A DNA stretch of 64,000 nucleotides, taken from positions 5,518,001-5,582,000 of the forward strand of contig NZ_CP019431.1 of NCBI RefSeq assembly GCF_009866765.1, written 5' to 3'. Origin of the DNA: Pseudomonas sp. S35 (GTDB lineage: Bacteria > Pseudomonadota > Gammaproteobacteria > Pseudomonadales > Pseudomonadaceae). The notes beneath the pieces are model-generated. The model was not told the DNA's origin. It did no database searches and was given only the letters and a program-made list of their open reading frames with translations. Shown in pieces: positions 12,856-19,715 of the stretch. Made by a program: the position numbers and the translations under genes. How positions within the stretch are numbered: the stretch's first letter is position 1; each line of letters opens with the position of its first letter.

Positions 12856-13311
12856 TCAGGCGCGCAGCGCAGTGGCCAACTCGGCCAGCCAGGGCTCGGC
12901 GTCGGCTTCGGGGGTGACGCTTTCACTGGCGTCCAGGCGCAGCATCGGCAGCACTTCGCGTACGCCCAACTCGGCGAACAACTCACGCATCTGCTCGCCG
13001 CCGCCACAAAAGGTGTCGCCGTAGCTGGCGTCGCCCAGGCCGATCACCGCGCCGGGCAGGCCGCGCCAGGCGGCAGGCAATTGGTCGCGAATCGTCGAAT
13101 ACAGCGGTTGCAGGTTATCCGGCAATTCACCCATGCCGGTGGTGGACGTCACGGCCAGGAAGGCCTCGGGGGCAAACGCCTGCACATCCGCCAGGGTCGC
13201 GCGTGCGTTGTGCCAGGCTTCAAAACCGGCGGCATTGAGGATGCCGGCGGCGTGGCGAGCGACTTCTTCAGCCGTGCCGTAGACCGAGCCGGAAAGGATG
13301 GCGACTTTCAT
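12856..13311 (-). CDS. Flavodoxin domain protein (MioC-like)
   Basis: The 151-residue protein starts MKVAILSGSVYGTAEEVARHA, whose SGSVYGTAE segment is the FMN phosphate loop of short-chain flavodoxins and MioC. Further flavin-contact loops are visible at TSTTGMGELPDN and GLGDASYGDTFCGGG. ATG 13311 was chosen over the TTG one codon earlier. It acts as a soluble one-electron carrier; MioC has been linked to biotin synthase, but that assignment here is only by family. It is divergent from the LOV photoreceptor gene 128 bp away. Confidence 0.85.
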   Translation of the reverse strand: MKVAILSGSVYGTAEEVARHAAGILNAAGFEAWHNARATLADVQAFAPEAFLAVTSTTGMGELPDNLQPLYSTIRDQLPAAWRGLPGAVIGLGDASYGDTFCGGGEQMRELFAELGVREVLPMLRLDASESVTPEADAEPWLAELATALRA

Positions 13312-13439
13312 CAATCTGATCCTGTAGCTGAGTGAAAGCGTGGGATATTAACAGCGGTGCAAATATTTCGGGGCACGCCGTGCAACATTCTGAAGTTGCC
13401 ATAAACTGCTGATTCCAAAATCAAGCCATGGACCGCTCA

Positions 13440-13907
13440 ATGATTAACGCCAAGCTGATGCAACTAGTCATCAACGCTTCCAACGACGGCATCGTCGTCG
13501 CTGAACGCGAAGGCAAGGACAAACCACTGATTTACGTGAACCCGGCGTTCGAACGGCTGAGCGGTTACACCCTGGATGAAATCCTCTATCAGGATTGCCG
13601 CTTCCTGCAATCGGGTGACCGCGACCAGCCGGCCCTGATGGCTATTCGGGAGGCCTTGGAGAGTGGCGGCTCATGCCGGGAAACCCTGCGCAATTACCGC
13701 AAGGACGGCAGCCACTTCTGGAACGAACTGTCGCTTTCAACGGTATACAACGAGGCCGACAAGCAGACTTATTTTGTCGGCGTCCAAAAAGACGTCACGC
13801 TGCAGGTCAAGGCCCAGCAACGTGTCGCGCAGTTGGAGAAGGAACTGGCCCAGGTCAAAGCCGAACTGGCAGCGCTCAAGGCGACAAGCGGACTGAACAA
13901 AATTTAG
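13440..13907 (+). CDS. Short LOV blue-light photoreceptor, PpSB1-LOV homologue
   Basis: The 155-residue protein is a single PAS/LOV domain (about 1-120) and a C-terminal helix with coiled-coil character (QRVAQLEKELAQVKAEL). It has the FMN-adduct cysteine in QDCRFLQ (Cys53 with this start), the NYRKDG strand and the flavin-contact Gln in YFVGVQKDV (Gln116). These numbers equal those of P. putida PpSB1-LOV, which is why ATG 13440 is preferred to ATG 13428. Short LOV proteins lack an output domain. In P. putida they are encoded beside LitR/CarH-like PplR regulators and are needed for light-induced transcription; the same neighbour occurs here at 14576. Confidence 0.93.
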   Translation: MINAKLMQLVINASNDGIVVAEREGKDKPLIYVNPAFERLSGYTLDEILYQDCRFLQSGDRDQPALMAIREALESGGSCRETLRNYRKDGSHFWNELSLSTVYNEADKQTYFVGVQKDVTLQVKAQQRVAQLEKELAQVKAELAALKATSGLNKI

Positions 13908-13967
13908 AAAAAGCGGCCGTAAGAGCGGATAATGGCACTTTAATGCCCTCCCTACTGAGCAAGCACG

Positions 13968-14573
13968 ATGCAACGCAATGCGCTTCTGACCCAGGATGAG
14001 CTGGATTTCATTCAGAACATGCAGCACAACCCGCAACTGAACCTGCGGGATGCTTCGTCGAGCCTGACCGTCAACGGCGGTGCGCAGATTCGCGACTTGC
14101 TTACCCGCTTGGCCGCCCACGACCACGTCACCATCCAGGCGCAGTTCGACAACCAGCAGCTGACGTTCCCCCTGCACCTGGTGGAGGACGAGTTCAATGC
14201 GGTGCATCTGCGTCTGGGGGTGCCGAGTATTTTCGAAGACGGCCCGGTGATCCGCGCCTGGCGCCTGGCGCTGGAAGCACCGGTGGCCCTGGAGAACATC
14301 AAGGGCTCGGCGGGCGCGCTGTGGGTGCATGAGGTGTCATTCAAGGGCGTGCTGGTGGAGATTCGCGGCCGGATCAAACCACCCAAGACTTTTTCCCTGT
14401 GGTTCAGCCCGTCCGGCTACGAGCGCATCGCGTTGCGCGGCGCATTCGAGCGCGAAACAGCGCGGGGTTTGTTTGCCTATCGCCTGAGCCAAAGCGATGC
14501 CGATGAGATCGAGCGCCTGCGCCAGTTCATCCTGCATCAGCACCGTCTGGTGCACCCGCAGATGCACGCCTGA
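13968..14573 (+). CDS. Conserved hypothetical protein between the LOV and MerR genes
   Basis: The 201-residue product starts MQRNALLTQDELDFIQNM. It has no signal peptide or membrane segment. The first half (LTVNGGAQIRDLLTRLAAHDHVTIQAQFDNQQ) has an alternating hydrophobic pattern like a small beta-barrel, loosely like the N-terminal domain of PilZ-type flagellar brake proteins, but I see no RxxxR c-di-GMP motif. It is 60 bp after the LOV gene in the same direction and converges, with a 2-bp gap, on the MerR regulator. Function unknown. Confidence 0.8.
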   Translation: MQRNALLTQDELDFIQNMQHNPQLNLRDASSSLTVNGGAQIRDLLTRLAAHDHVTIQAQFDNQQLTFPLHLVEDEFNAVHLRLGVPSIFEDGPVIRAWRLALEAPVALENIKGSAGALWVHEVSFKGVLVEIRGRIKPPKTFSLWFSPSGYERIALRGAFERETARGLFAYRLSQSDADEIERLRQFILHQHRLVHPQMHA

Positions 14574-14575
14574 GA

Positions 14576-15535
14576 TCAGGTATCCAGGCTACCGCTGAGA
14601 AACTGCTGCAAGCGGCGCTGCATCTGCCGCCCTTCGCTGCCCAGGCAGCCGACGGAGGTCCCTGCCAGCGCGGTCTGCGCCAGGTCCGACGCCGCACCGG
14701 CAATAAACAGTGGGCAGTCGAGGGTCAACGCCAGGCGATTGAGGCGTCCGGCCAGCTCAAGGTTGTGGGCGTGGTTGGAGAAGATGATCAGCGCCTGGGA
14801 GTGAGTTTTTTCACACACCAGGGTCAGCTCATCAAACGGCTGGCCCATGCCCAGCACTTTCACGGCCAGGTCATCGCGACTCATCAACAACGCTGCCACC
14901 AGCAGCTCCAGTTTGCGGCATTCGCCGGGCATGGCGCTCAGCAATACCCGAGGCGCAGGCGACACCGTCGCAACGTGCAGTCGCATGAAAGTCTGTACAC
15001 GCAGGAAGGCGTCGAAAAACAGCCATTCGCTGGCCTGGCCGAAGCGGCCCTGGTGGCGCAATAGCTCGTTCCAGAGAGGCATCAGGATGTCCTGAAACGC
15101 CACGTTGAGAGGATAGGTGGCAACAACCTGGCCGTACAGGCTCTCCAACTGGCGATCATCAAAGGCGCTGACGGCGCTCATCAACCGCGCGCGCCACTGC
15201 GGCCACTCGGCCGCTTCACGGGTGTCACGCTCAGCGCGAACCACTTCGGCCTGCTGATCGTCGTGGGCGAGAATCTTGCCGACCTTGCTCACTGCGACGC
15301 CACGCTCGATCCAATCAAGGATGCGATTAACGGTCTCAATATCGGCCTTGGAATAAAGGCGATGCCCACTTTCGGTGCGTGCGGGCTGGATCAGCCCATA
15401 ACGCCGCTCCCAGGCACGCAGGGTAACCGGGTTGACGCCTGTCAGTCTTGATACTTCACGGATTGGAAACAGCTCCGGGGAACCAGTTGAATCCAGAAGC
15501 GAAAGGCTATCAATGGGAGCAGTAATTACGTGCAT
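14576..15535 (-). CDS. LitR/CarH-like (PplR-type) MerR-family regulator with degenerate B12 domain
   Basis: The 319-residue protein has a MerR winged helix at about 22-95 (FPIREVSRLTGVNPVTLRAWERRYGLI) and a cobalamin-binding-like C-terminal half. In canonical CarH a His in a GExH-type motif is the lower cobalt ligand; the equivalent place here reads MPGECRKLE (202-210) with no His, and the helix bundle has SEW where CarH has an EH pair. This fits the class II LitR/PplR proteins that work with a LOV photoreceptor instead of B12, and a LOV gene is 0.7 kb away. ATG 15535 starts MHVITAPIDS. Confidence 0.88.
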   Translation of the reverse strand: MHVITAPIDSLSLLDSTGSPELFPIREVSRLTGVNPVTLRAWERRYGLIQPARTESGHRLYSKADIETVNRILDWIERGVAVSKVGKILAHDDQQAEVVRAERDTREAAEWPQWRARLMSAVSAFDDRQLESLYGQVVATYPLNVAFQDILMPLWNELLRHQGRFGQASEWLFFDAFLRVQTFMRLHVATVSPAPRVLLSAMPGECRKLELLVAALLMSRDDLAVKVLGMGQPFDELTLVCEKTHSQALIIFSNHAHNLELAGRLNRLALTLDCPLFIAGAASDLAQTALAGTSVGCLGSEGRQMQRRLQQFLSGSLDT

Positions 15536-15579
15536 TTGACACCAAAAAACCGGCGGTAGTCGGGCGCTCATTTAACGCT

Positions 15580-15609
15580 TTTACATCTGTCCTTTTCAAG
15601 GTCTGTACA
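15580..15609 (-). promoter_or_regulatory. Candidate MerR/PplR operator over the regulator's own promoter
   Basis: Read on the minus strand, TGTACA (15609-15604) is followed after 18 bases by TGTAAA (15585-15580). A TTGAAA lies between them and a TTAAAT follows with N18 spacing, giving a plausible promoter for the MerR gene with half-sites flanking the -35. TGTACA is the half-site of CarH/LitR proteins; the published PplR1 repeat, as I recall it, has a 12-base spacer, so the spacing here differs. Confidence 0.5.
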
Positions 15610-15749
15610 TTTCTGACCAATGCCGCTGGTGTATTGCGACAAAACAGGAATAATCCTTGCCTGTTTTTTCTACGTTGCTGCAACACCCCGCAGCTTCGTC
15701 TGTGTGCCACCTACCCGGTCCAGCGCACCCGTACATTTGGAGATACACA

Positions 15750-16310
15750 ATGTCTACCTCTCCCGTCACCTTGATGGTTGCGCGCCGCGTGGCCAAAGGG
15801 CGCTACGAAGAACTGATGGCCTGGCTGCGCGAAGGCGAGCAATTGGCCACCGATTTCCCTGGCTACCTGGGTTCTGGCGTACTTGCGCCGCCGCCCAACG
15901 ATGACGAATTCCAGATCATTTTCCGCTTCGCTGATGAGAAGACCCTGCACGCTTGGGAGTTTTCCGCCTCCCGGGGGGCGTGGCTGAGCCGTGGCAGCGA
16001 TCTGTTTGCCGACCCGTCCGAGCATCGCGTGCGTGGCATCGATGGCTGGTTTGGTGCTGCGGGCGCACGCCCACCGCGCTGGAAGCAGGCGGTGGCGATC
16101 TGGCTGGCGTTTTTCCCGGTGTCGCTGCTGTTCAACTTTGTATTGGGCCCACTGCTCAACGGGTTGGACCTGCTGCCTCGGGTACTGGTCAGCACGATGG
16201 CACTCACGCCGCTGATGGTTTACTGGTTCATCCCGCTGTCGACCCACCTGTTGGCGAACTGGCTGCACCCCGCGCCAACACCGCGCAAGGCCACCGAAGC
16301 GGCGGCGTGA
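15750..16310 (+). CDS. Antibiotic biosynthesis monooxygenase (ABM)-domain membrane protein
   Basis: The 186-residue protein has an N-terminal ABM-type ferredoxin-like domain (about 5-100: VTLMVARRVAKGRYEELMAWLREGEQ... and DEFQIIFRF) and a C-terminal part with two hydrophobic segments (about 120-170), which would anchor it in the inner membrane. GGAG lies about 9 bases before ATG 15750. It is divergent from the MerR light regulator, with the candidate operator between them, so it is a likely regulated target. The enzymatic role is unknown. Confidence 0.8.
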   Translation: MSTSPVTLMVARRVAKGRYEELMAWLREGEQLATDFPGYLGSGVLAPPPNDDEFQIIFRFADEKTLHAWEFSASRGAWLSRGSDLFADPSEHRVRGIDGWFGAAGARPPRWKQAVAIWLAFFPVSLLFNFVLGPLLNGLDLLPRVLVSTMALTPLMVYWFIPLSTHLLANWLHPAPTPRKATEAAA

Positions 16311-16324
16311 GTACAGGGGCGACC

Positions 16325-16357
16325 CGTCGCTGGTATGATTTGCGCCTGCCAGCGACG
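16325..16357 (+). promoter_or_regulatory. Inverted repeat around the folM -10 region
   Basis: A 9-bp perfect inverted repeat CGTCGCTGG (16325-16333) / CCAGCGACG (16349-16357) encloses TATGAT (16334-16339), a good -10 hexamer 29 bp before the folM ATG. The position suits a repressor operator; it could also form a hairpin near the 5' end of the mRNA. Confidence 0.45.
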
Positions 16358-16367
16358 CGAGCCTCCC

Positions 16368-17078
16368 ATGACTGCAACGAACGCCCCGATCCTGATCACC
16401 GGCGCCGGCCAACGTGTCGGCCTGCATTGCGCCCAGCGACTGCTGGACGAAGGCCAGCCGGTGATCTTCAGCTACCGCAGCGAACGTCCCGGCGTGCAGG
16501 CCCTGCGCGAACGCGGTGCGATCGGCGTGTTTGCCGACTTTTCCAATGAAGCTGGAATCCTGGCGTTTATCGCTGAACTGAACACCCACACTCAAAGCCT
16601 GCGCGCAATCATCCACAATGCGTCAGCCTGGGTCGCGGAAACACCGGGTGACGAAAGCCGTGCCTTCAGCGACATGTTCAGCGTACACATGCTTGCGCCG
16701 TACCTGATCAACCTGCATTGTTCACCCCTGCTGCAACGCTCAACACCTGCCGACATCGTGCATATCAGCGATGACGTGGTACGCAAGGGCAGCGCCCAGC
16801 ACATCGCCTACTGCGCCACCAAGGCCGGGCTCGACAGCCTTACGCTGTCGTTTGCCGCGCAGTTCGCGCCGCTGATCAAGGTCAACGGCATCGCCCCGGC
16901 GATGGTGATGTTCAACGAAGGCGACGCCGCCGCCTACCGCGCCAAGGTGCTGGCCAAGTCGGCCCTGGGCATAGAGCCAGGCCCGGAAGTGATTTACCAG
17001 AGCGTGCGTTACCTGCTGGACAACCCCTACGTCACCGGTACCACCCTGACCGTCAACGGCGGGCGGCATATCAAGTAA
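16368..17078 (+). CDS. folM: Dihydromonapterin reductase FolM (short-chain dehydrogenase)
   Basis: The 236-residue SDR has the NADPH motif ITGAGQRVG, NASAW in place of NNAG, and the catalytic YCATK. These variants and the adjacent folE and folX genes identify FolM, which reduces dihydromonapterin to tetrahydromonapterin, the pterin cofactor of phenylalanine hydroxylase in Pseudomonas. ATG 16368 was chosen because the Rossmann strand starts soon after; the earlier in-frame ATG at 16335 would begin inside the -10 region. folE follows 20 bp later, so folM-folE-folX form one operon. Confidence 0.88.
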   Translation: MTATNAPILITGAGQRVGLHCAQRLLDEGQPVIFSYRSERPGVQALRERGAIGVFADFSNEAGILAFIAELNTHTQSLRAIIHNASAWVAETPGDESRAFSDMFSVHMLAPYLINLHCSPLLQRSTPADIVHISDDVVRKGSAQHIAYCATKAGLDSLTLSFAAQFAPLIKVNGIAPAMVMFNEGDAAAYRAKVLAKSALGIEPGPEVIYQSVRYLLDNPYVTGTTLTVNGGRHIK

Positions 17079-17098
17079 GCCGTTTGTGAGGATGTTGT

Positions 17099-17659
17099 AT
17101 GACCTTATCCCTGCCCCAACACTACCGCGAGATCCTCAAAGGCCTGGGTGAAGACCCGGAGCGCGAAGGCTTGCTCGACACCCCCAAGCGCGCTGCCAAG
17201 GCCATGCAGTACCTGTGTCATGGCTACGCGCAGAACCTTGAGGAAATCGTCAACGGTGCGCTGTTCGCATCCGATAATGACGAGATGGTGATCCTCAAGG
17301 ACATCGAACTGTATTCGCTGTGCGAACACCACTTGCTGCCCTTTATCGGCAGGGCCCATGTGGCCTATATTCCGACCGGCAGAGTGCTGGGCCTATCCAA
17401 GCTGGCGCGCATCGTCGACATGTTCGCCCGACGCCTGCAGATCCAGGAAAACCTCACGCGGCAGATCGCCGACGCCATCCAGGACGTGACCCAGGCCGCT
17501 GGCGTGGCAGTGGTGATCGAAGCCAAGCACATGTGCATGATGATGCGCGGCGTGGAAAAACAGAATTCAACCATGAACACCTCCGTGATGCTCGGCGCGT
17601 TCCGCGAGTCGAACACCACGCGCATGGAGTTCCTGCAATTGATTGGACGGAGCAAGTAG
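17099..17659 (+). CDS. folE: GTP cyclohydrolase I
   Basis: The 186-residue protein matches the short FolE family, which converts GTP to 7,8-dihydroneopterin triphosphate and formate. The zinc ligands are seen in LCEHHLLPF (Cys and His) and [10 protein letters not shown] (Cys). It is the committed step for both folate and tetrahydromonapterin. The clustering with folM and folX suggests this copy is dedicated to tetrahydromonapterin. A folE gene is among the light-inducible genes reported in P. putida KT2440, and this copy is 3.2 kb from the LOV gene. Confidence 0.95.
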
Positions 17660-17661
17660 CA

Positions 17662-18033
17662 ATGCCACAACTTCAACCAGGCATGGCGCGCATCCGGGTC
17701 AAGGACCTGTGCCTGCGCACCTTCATCGGCATCAATGAGGACGAGATCCTCAACAAGCAGGATGTGCTGATCAACCTGACCATCCTGTATGCCGCCCAAG
17801 AGGCGGTACGCGACAACGACATCGACCACGCGCTGAACTACCGCACCATCACCAAGGCGATCATCGCCCATGTGGAAGGCAACCGCTTCGCCCTGCTGGA
17901 GCGCCTGACCCAGGAGTTGCTGGACCTGGTGATGAGCAATGAGTCGGTGCTGTATGCCGAAGTCGAAGTAGACAAGCCCCATGCACTGCGCTTTGCCGAA
18001 TCGGTTTCGATCACCCTGGCGGCCAGCCGCTGA
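17662..18033 (+). CDS. folX: Dihydroneopterin triphosphate 2'-epimerase FolX
   Basis: The 123-residue protein belongs to the FolB/FolX tunnelling-fold family. Visible family marks are the start [19 protein letters not shown] and the NYRTITK and [11 protein letters not shown] segments. FolX epimerises dihydroneopterin triphosphate to the monapterin form, which FolM later reduces. ATG 17662 lies 2 bp past the folE stop, so translation is probably coupled; longer in-frame starts inside folE were rejected. FolB is the alternative identity, but the folM neighbour and length favour FolX. Confidence 0.87.
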
Positions 18034-18049
18034 CCATTAAGTGAACCCT

Positions 18050-18346
18050 ATGAACGACCAACAACGCCTCGAACTCGAAGCCGCCGCCTTTCGCCGGCTG
18101 GTAGCACACCTGGACAGCCGCAAGGATGTGCAGAACATCGACCTGATGAACCTCTCCGGGTTCTGCCGCAACTGCTTGTCGAAGTGGTACAAGGCCGAGG
18201 CCGATGAGCGCCAGATCGAGCTGAGCCTCGATGACGCCCGTGAAGTGGTGTACGGCATGCCGTACGCCGAGTGGAAAGCCCAATACCAGAAAGAAGCCAG
18301 CGCCGACCAACAGGCGGCGTTCGCCAAAGGAAAAACCCATGACTGA
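18050..18346 (+). CDS. DUF1244 family protein
   Basis: The 98-residue acidic, helical protein carries the conserved DUF1244 core LMNLSGFCRNCLSKWYKAEAD with its CxxC pair. The function of this family is not established. ATG 18050 was chosen over the GTG at 18041. It follows folX by 16 bp and overlaps the next gene by 8 bp, so all five genes from folM to the hopJ-like gene are probably co-transcribed. Confidence 0.85.
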   Translation: MNDQQRLELEAAAFRRLVAHLDSRKDVQNIDLMNLSGFCRNCLSKWYKAEADERQIELSLDDAREVVYGMPYAEWKAQYQKEASADQQAAFAKGKTHD

Positions 18347-18680
18347 TTTGAACACCCTGCGCGCCAGCCTCAACAGCGGCGAACACGTTTTTGCCGATAC
18401 CCTGGCGTTTATTGCCGCCGGTTATGACTACCAGCCGCAAGCCTTCACCAACGGCGCGGTGGAAAACGCGGCCGGGCAAAATGAAGGGTCGTGCAAGACT
18501 TTGGGCTTGGCGGTACTGGAAGGCTTGAGTGATCAGCAAGCGCTGCTGGCGTTTGGTGAGCATTACCGCTCGGTGCTGGCGACGCCTGAGGGCAGCGACC
18601 ACGGCAATATTCGGGCATTGATTGCCAATGGCCTGGCCGGCGTGAAATTCAGCGCGCAGCCCCTGGCCCGCAAATCCTAA
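18339..18680 (+). CDS. HopJ-family protein
   Basis: The 113-residue protein (MTDLNTLRASLNSGEHVFADTLAFI...) matches the HopJ family: the GYDYQPQAFTNGAVENAAGQNEGS core is diagnostic. Despite the name from a P. syringae effector screen, it is widespread in non-pathogens and seems to be a housekeeping protein of unknown role. It starts inside the end of the DUF1244 gene (8-bp overlap) and closes the folM operon; a terminator-like hairpin follows 14 bp later. Confidence 0.87.
   Translation: MTDLNTLRASLNSGEHVFADTLAFIAAGYDYQPQAFTNGAVENAAGQNEGSCKTLGLAVLEGLSDQQALLAFGEHYRSVLATPEGSDHGNIRALIANGLAGVKFSAQPLARKS

Positions 18681-18743: not shown

Positions 18744-19715
<972 letters not shown>

What the first reader, a model, noticed from the sequence alone, without database searches (positions are those of the whole stretch)
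13440..18680. Blue-light module (short LOV + LitR/CarH-like MerR) directly beside a tetrahydromonapterin operon
A PpSB1-type LOV protein, an unknown gene and a PplR-like MerR regulator are followed by a divergent ABM membrane protein and folM-folE-folX-DUF1244-hopJ. In P. putida, PplR/PpSB-LOV pairs control light-inducible genes that include folE, photolyase and cryptochrome genes. Here the complete H4-monapterin pathway is physically next to the sensor. That suggests light-controlled synthesis of a reduced pterin, perhaps as a cofactor or antenna for light-dependent enzymes.
Basis: partly seen in the sequence, partly recalled or inferred. Interest (0 to 1): 0.75.

Follow-up and report, generated by a model that had tools for sequence, protein, structure and literature searches.

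The report
Light-sensor genes beside pterin-synthesis operon
A known bacterial blue-light switch sits next to genes that make a reduced pterin; many relatives carry the switch's DNA-binding site in front of those genes, this strain's lineage has largely lost it, and a gene in between carries a conserved folded RNA leader that matches no known RNA family.

Summary
The genes are as described: short LOV photoreceptor, unknown protein, class II LitR-like MerR, divergent ABM membrane protein, folM-folE-folX-DUF1244-hopJ. The linkage and its meaning are not new: PMC9758184 reports LOV-unknown-LitR beside folM-folE-folX in P. mendocina, modest light induction of folM and folE (1.6- to 3.3-fold), LitR binding at the folM promoter, and LOV as light-dependent anti-repressor. 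The gene order is old and shared across Pseudomonadaceae. New here: (1) the LitR operator over the folM promoter (TGTACA-N12-GGTATA) stands in 29 of 43 linked loci outside the P. fluorescens lineage and 0 of 20 LOV-less genomes, but is missing in this genome and in 83 of 86 rows of its clade, although operators at the photolyase cluster survive. Direct light control of fol is doubtful in this strain. (2) ABM has a covarying two-hairpin RNA leader without an Rfam match, once per genome in 64 of 198 family genomes, directly before ABM in 30 of 30 fetched loci, also away from fol and LOV. (3) The unknown protein looks PilZ/YcgR-like.

The parts
12856..13314 (-). MioC-like flavodoxin, edge of the old gene block
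   Evidence: NF004343, 300.9 bits, cut-off 204
13428..13907 (+). short LOV blue-light photoreceptor
13968..14573 (+). 201-aa protein, PilZ/YcgR-like by predicted fold; no Pfam or NCBIfam match
14576..15571 (-). class II LitR-like MerR regulator
15626..15660 (+). conserved promoter-like element of ABM (CTGGTG ... AGGAATAATCCTTGC); sigma-54-like or sigma-70-like, not decided
15669..15747 (+). ABM RNA leader, match to covariance model R1 (E 9.4e-8)
15672..15699 (+). leader hairpin P1, loop AACACCCC
15702..15728 (+). leader hairpin P2, loop UACCC
15750..16310 (+). ABM-domain membrane protein
   Evidence: ABM domain; membrane part by eye from the sequence
16310..16339 (+). folM promoter region: AGTACA (16310-16315), CAGGGG (16314-16319) where relatives have the left operator half TGTACA, GGTATG (16332-16337) with the -10-like TATGAT (16334-16339)
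16368..17078 (+). FolM, dihydromonapterin reductase
   Evidence: NF005066, 354 bits, cut-off 249
17099..17659 (+). FolE, GTP cyclohydrolase I
17662..18033 (+). FolX, dihydroneopterin triphosphate 2'-epimerase
   Evidence: NF008418, 194.6 bits, cut-off 152
18050..18346 (+). DUF1244 protein
18339..18680 (+). HopJ-family protein (Pfam name)

Best explanation
The locus is a member of the published short-LOV/class II LitR light switch, set in an old gene block (mioC, PilZ-like gene, folM-folE-folX, DUF1244, hopJ). In the dark LitR represses promoters with T(G/A)TACA-N12-TGTA(C/T)A; LOV activated by blue light binds LitR and releases it (shown in P. mendocina, inferred here). In the family at large the fol operon is a direct target, through a site that overlaps the folM -10 region. 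In this strain's lineage that site has decayed, and the recognisable intergenic targets left in this genome are those of the photolyase / CFA-type synthase / second-LitR cluster at 886-888 kb. The fol operon here probably runs from its own promoter with little direct light control. ABM, between LitR and folM, is a separate unit with its own promoter-like element and a folded RNA leader that probably regulates it.
For: Mechanism and folM control in P. mendocina: PMC9758184. Conserved gene order. Operator at folM in 29 of 43 linked loci outside the fluorescens lineage, 0 of 133 with the reversed pattern; 0 of 20 LOV-less genomes. In the window none at up to 2 mismatches, left half CAGGGG; 83 of 86 rows of the clade and 35 of 35 of the inner clade lack it. 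Exact operators kept at 886 kb, in 25 of 25 related genomes, and before the same cluster-head gene in 17 of 25 fetched loci. LitR recognition helix the same in the window and 8 of 8 relatives compared. ABM leader.
Against: AGTACA or a close form stands 15-16 bases before GGTAT in 32 of 35 rows of the window's inner clade, so a re-spaced LitR site may exist. Operator tests use the consensus of PplR1/PmlR2, not of this LitR. Loci are related, so counts are not independent (at least 8 changes). The operator is also absent in 14 of the 43 linked loci outside the lineage. No expression data for this lineage were found.
Confidence: 0.6

Rival explanations
1. The fol operon is still light-controlled here, through a changed LitR site (AGTACA-N16-GGTATG) or indirectly, so the first reader's reading holds for this strain too.
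For: GTACA at 15 or 16 bases before GGTAT in 32 of 35 rows of the inner clade; LOV, LitR and fol stay together; folM is light-induced in P. mendocina.
Against: Spacing differs by 3-4 bases from the N12 form; the left half overlaps the end of ABM, which may explain part of its conservation; no site at up to 2 mismatches.
Confidence: 0.3
2. The linkage is passive: LOV and LitR merely sit in an old gene block and never had a special tie to pterin synthesis.
For: LOV-less genomes keep parts of the block: 11 of 20 have folX beside folM; in 22 of 100 fetched family loci LOV and LitR stand without fol.
Against: The operator sits at the folM promoter in 29 of 43 linked loci and in 0 of 20 LOV-less ones; published folM induction and binding.
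Confidence: 0.08
3. The ABM leader hairpins act as DNA (protein-binding palindromes) or as part of a separate small RNA, not as a cis-acting RNA leader.
For: They lie just behind a conserved promoter-like element; the antisense strand also folds somewhat (mean z -1.5, 13 of 40 below -2).
Against: Stems vary with compensation while loops are kept, the reverse of what DNA sites usually show; sense strand mean z -3.11, ABM coding control -0.01; the leader ends at the ABM ribosome-binding site and goes with ABM.
Confidence: 0.15

Closest known systems
PmlR2 / PmSB-LOV and folM-folE-folX of Pseudomonas mendocina NBRC 14162 (PMC9758184)
   Same: LOV, unknown gene and class II LitR beside folM-folE-folX; same switch logic expected
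   Different: there folM has TGTACA-N12-GGTATA 95 bp before its start and is light-induced; here that site is not found
PplR1-3 / PpSB1- and PpSB2-LOV of P. putida KT2440 (described in PMC9758184; the original paper is not held)
   Same: class II LitR with short LOV; photolyase, UfaM and FolE among the light-induced genes
   Different: this genome has one LOV at E <= 1e-30 and two strong LitR matches; sequences of the KT2440 proteins were not compared here
CarH / LitR class I B12 photoreceptors
   Same: MerR HTH of the same kin
   Different: no B12-binding domain found in this LitR by Pfam
PilZ proteins MotI/DgrA, YcgR, MrkH
   Same: predicted two-domain fold of the 201-aa protein, C-terminal half confident
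   Different: no Pfam match; c-di-GMP motifs look degenerate by eye (motifs recalled); N-terminal half of the model is poor
Pseudomonas leader RNAs of the Weinberg 2010 set (PMC2864571, passages seen)
   Same: small structured leaders confined to Pseudomonadales
   Different: no Rfam 15 match to this leader; not all motifs of that paper have an Rfam entry, and their sequences were not compared

Membership tests
short LOV photoreceptor | LOV core with the photoactive cysteine and no effector domain | tested here: met
   YQDCRFLQ motif, 159 aa, PAS only, close to PDB 7yx0 over 156 residues
short LOV photoreceptor | flavin adduct and dark recovery | not testable with these tools
   needs protein
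class II LitR/CarH | MerR HTH with LitR-type DNA-binding helix | tested here: met
class II LitR/CarH | no complete B12-binding domain | tested here: met
   no B12 domain reported; the paralogue at 884 kb shows B12-binding_2 alone
class II LitR/CarH | LOV-dependent, light-dependent release from DNA | not testable with these tools
   shown only for PmlR2 (PMC9758184)
LOV-LitR-controlled fol operon | LitR operator at the folM promoter | tested here: not met
   none at up to 2 mismatches in the locus; CAGGGG in place of TGTACA; AGTACA-N16-GGTATG present
LOV-LitR-controlled fol operon | gene linkage | tested here: met
tetrahydromonapterin pathway | FolE, FolX and FolM together | tested here: met
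   all above NCBIfam cut-offs
structured cis-regulatory RNA (ABM leader) | stems kept by compensatory change | tested here: met
   (alignment fitted to the structure); weaker but same direction; RNAalifold on the MAFFT alignment found only 2 pairs
structured cis-regulatory RNA (ABM leader) | effect on expression of the downstream gene | not testable with these tools
   position only: directly before ABM in 30 of 30 fetched loci
known Rfam family (ABM leader) | match to an Rfam 15 model | tested here: not met
   no match at the leader: window at E <= 10, five relatives at E <= 1
PilZ (201-aa protein) | PilZ fold | tested here: met
   Foldseek hits MotI, YcgR, MrkH and PilZ domains on a model confident only in its C-terminal half
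PilZ (201-aa protein) | c-di-GMP binding | not tested
   no assay possible

The most novel reading that the evidence does not exclude
The 5' leader of the ABM gene is an undescribed cis-regulatory RNA family of Pseudomonadaceae: two hairpins that present ACCC-type loops and act on ABM translation or mRNA stability through a partner still unknown (small RNA, protein or metabolite).
Probability: 0.7. Interest if true: 0.55.

Novelty: new variant of a known kind. Interest (0 to 1): 0.45.

Why it matters
The linkage itself is published. What is new is that a light switch can stay beside its old target operon after the target's binding site has decayed, so gene order alone would mislead a prediction of light-controlled pterin synthesis in this lineage; operator-bearing and operator-less species give a clean comparison. 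The ABM leader is a well-supported folded RNA without an Rfam family, in front of a gene of unknown role, and can be tested directly with reporters.

Tried and rejected
Rejected: that the linkage is unique to this strain. Rejected: that the exact operators at 4709031 and 6279257 are regulatory; both lie inside long reading frames. Rejected: that the leader is an N-terminal extension of ABM; leader lengths vary by amounts that are not multiples of three, and a strong ribosome-binding site precedes 15750.

Considered, not decided: promoter type of ABM. GG-N8-TTGC in 29 of 30 loci, the 30th (L310) keeps GG-N10-GC, which fits sigma-54; CTGGYG about 17 bases before AATAAT, seen by eye in most of the same rows, fits a sigma-70 type.

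Led nowhere or against: RNAalifold on the MAFFT alignment A2 gave only 2 pairs, I think because stems that differ by a bulge were not lined up. The covariation count on A4 is on an alignment fitted to the structure; A4 holds sequences used to build the model and one weak extra hit (L209, E 0.45). On A3 with a hand-set structure cells with a change on both sides (22 against 11.0) and the score (0.220 against 0.141) beat 500 of 500 shuffles, but pairs with a change on both sides (6 against 4.9; 126 of 500 shuffles as high) and pair types (62 of 500) do not stand out. Against a strict tie of RNA and ABM: L284-L287 carry a 59-61% ABM without a match, and L060, where ABM was not detected, has one. 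Of 244 genomes of the order 5 match, all in the window's genus (strict filters). In 5 of 102 leaders folding is no better than z -1.

Rows left out: L060 and L079 (FolM-like 39-41%) and L068 (contig end) from the folM counts; 40 of the 140 other genomes with a LOV match were not fetched; of 57 LOV-less genomes only the 20 that were listed were examined, and 6 of these 20 have a folM match of only 42-48%. LOV-less means no LOV match at E <= 1e-30; LitR was not searched genome-wide in them.

Literature: searches. No paper on the ABM leader was seen (passages of PMC2864571); this library lacks most subscription journals. PMC9758184: parts 1-4 of 8 plus passages. PMC13259868: passages. The P. putida PplR paper is not held.
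Full report
What is there. The reading frames match the finding: LOV (13428-13907), a 201-aa protein (13968-14573), LitR (14576-15571, minus), ABM (15750-16310), folM (16368-17078), folE (17099-17659), folX (17662-18033), DUF1244 (18050-18346) and hopJ (18339-18680). Family scans support the names; the 201-aa protein has no match. The LOV protein is close to the solved short LOV 7yx0.

It is known. PMC9758184 describes pmSB-LOV, an unknown gene and pmlR2 beside folM, folE and folX in P. mendocina. Light induced folM 2.4- to 2.5-fold and folE 1.6- to 3.3-fold, far less than phrB (26.7- to 33.2-fold). PmlR2 bound the folM promoter region; light-activated LOV bound PmlR2 and inhibited its DNA binding. 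The authors point to TGTACA-N12-GGTATA, 95 bp before folM. So neither the linkage nor the light-control idea is new.

Gene order. In 80 fetched Pseudomonas loci (the best LOV matches) LOV and LitR occur in 80, the 201-aa gene in 79, folM in 77, ABM in 66. In L037, L039 and L096 folE is missing between folM and folX. In the family a LOV relative occurs in 141 of 198 genomes at E <= 1e-30 (some are LOV domains of larger proteins). Of 100 such loci fetched, 55 have LitR(-) followed by folM(+), in genus groups g1, g4, g5, g10 and g12; 22 have only LOV and LitR. Among 20 LOV-less genomes, 11 keep folX beside folM and 5 more show mioC, DUF1244 and hopJ near a weaker folM match, so the block is older than, or independent of, the light genes.

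The operator in this genome. Four exact operators exist: two 50 bp apart at 886 kb, in front of a cluster with a 2-thiouracil desulfurase/DUF1722 protein, a second LitR, photolyase, SnoaL-like and SDR proteins, an FAD oxidoreductase and a CFA-type synthase, and two inside long reading frames. With one mismatch the pattern gives 23 sites and the reversed control 11, so most of the one-mismatch sites may be chance; one, TGTACA-N12-GGTATA at 887721, lies between genes beside the same cluster. The fol locus has none at up to two mismatches (the nearest is inside trxB at 19376).

The operator in relatives. Within 200 bp before folM, at up to one mismatch: g1 11 of 26 (window included), g12 12 of 16, g10 2 of 4, g5 2 of 8, g4 2 of 2, the fluorescens set 3 of 77; the reversed pattern 0 of 133. 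Split by hand, the window and L114-L125 have 0 of 13 and the other g1 loci 11 of 13, so outside that lineage the count is 29 of 43. In 20 LOV-less genomes there are 0, 14 of them with a folM of at least 55% identity; L270 and L272 have the near miss TGTACA-N12-GCTATA. On a tree of 128 rows, 83 of the 86 rows of the well-supported clade that holds the window lack the operator, and 35 of 35 of its inner clade; the label needs 8 changes, against 28.7 in shuffles. The rows are related, so these counts are not independent events. In the outer part of the clade several left half-sites are one or two changes from TGTACA, as decay would leave.

The system is not lost as a whole. In 25 of 25 g1 genomes tested there are exact TGTACA-N12-TGTACA sites; the reversed control has one in 2 of 25. 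Of the 25 first sites fetched, 17 lie before the same cluster-head gene, 7 of them in the 12 window-like genomes. The recognition helix of LitR is the same in the window and in 8 of 8 relatives compared. The right half GGTATA persists in the clade, probably as part of the -10 region (inference). Against my reading, GTACA stands 15 or 16 bases before GGTAT in 32 of 35 rows of the inner clade: a re-spaced site is not excluded.

The unknown gene. AlphaFold with 16 sequences gives a confident C-terminal half and a poor N-terminal half. Foldseek finds MotI/DgrA, YcgR, MrkH and other PilZ proteins (best E 3.5e-4), and some database names of relatives say PilZ. It occurs also without LOV (L289 52%, L274 34%), so it need not belong to the light switch.

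The ABM leader. Between LitR and ABM lies a 15-base element kept in 106 loci (40 family loci at 0-1 mismatch, 66 of the fluorescens set at 0-2); in this genome no other place comes within two mismatches of the 18-base form. About 85 bases follow with two hairpins. Stems differ between species with compensation; loops stay ACCACCCC-like and UACCC. Of 102 distinct leaders, 100 fold with at least two loops holding ACCC or ATCC, mean z -3.11 (77 below -2, 5 above -1); 40 ABM coding controls give -0.01 and none below -2; 40 antisense leaders give -1.5 (the loop rule was set after seeing the sequences). On the model alignment 16 of 17 pairs have changes on both sides, 147 cells against 40.3 shuffled, score 0.491 against 0.166, slid versions at most 0.103 (fitted alignment; see Tried and rejected for weaker results). 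The model matches 40 of 40 ABM-bearing family loci given to it, the window at E 9.4e-8, and 64 of 198 family genomes, once each, in 8 of 19 genera. In 30 of 30 fetched loci ABM starts directly behind it; 9 of these show no fol, LOV or LitR within the 3-kb stretch. The leader thus belongs to ABM, not evidently to light or pterins. Rfam has no match there.

How it most likely works. Shown elsewhere: LOV as anti-repressor of LitR. Shown here: presence, gene order, operator distribution, RNA structure by comparison. Inferred: that this LOV and LitR act alike, that their main targets here are the photolyase cluster, that fol is largely uncoupled, and that the leader regulates ABM. Nothing here bears on a pterin antenna; this genome also has a second FolE, 80% identical.

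Verdict. Observation confirmed; interpretation partly supported; the linkage is already known; the operator loss and the ABM leader are the new parts.

Noticed in passing
window 15646-15749: Conserved promoter-like element and two-hairpin RNA leader in front of the ABM gene, without an Rfam match; travels with ABM.
   Followed up: yes
window 13968-14573: The 'unknown' gene between LOV and LitR is PilZ/YcgR-like by predicted fold and also occurs in LOV-less genomes.
   Followed up: partly
L060 and L079, between LitR and DUF1244: folE and folX are missing and a diverged FolM-like gene (39-41%) stands in the place of folM; L060 also keeps an RNA-leader match without a detected ABM.
   Followed up: partly
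L037, L039, L096: folE is missing between folM and folX, the rest of the order kept.
   Followed up: no
L100 8384-8457 and 9722-9745 (genome 886-888 kb): Two exact LitR operators 50 bp apart and a TGTACA-N12-GGTATA site beside the photolyase/second-LitR cluster of this genome.
   Followed up: partly
related genomes such as G071, G079, G087, G128: 4 to 6 exact LitR operators per genome, more than the photolyase-cluster pair; further targets of the light switch may exist there.
   Followed up: no
genome 4560454-4560993: A second folE, 80% identical to the one in the operon.
   Followed up: no
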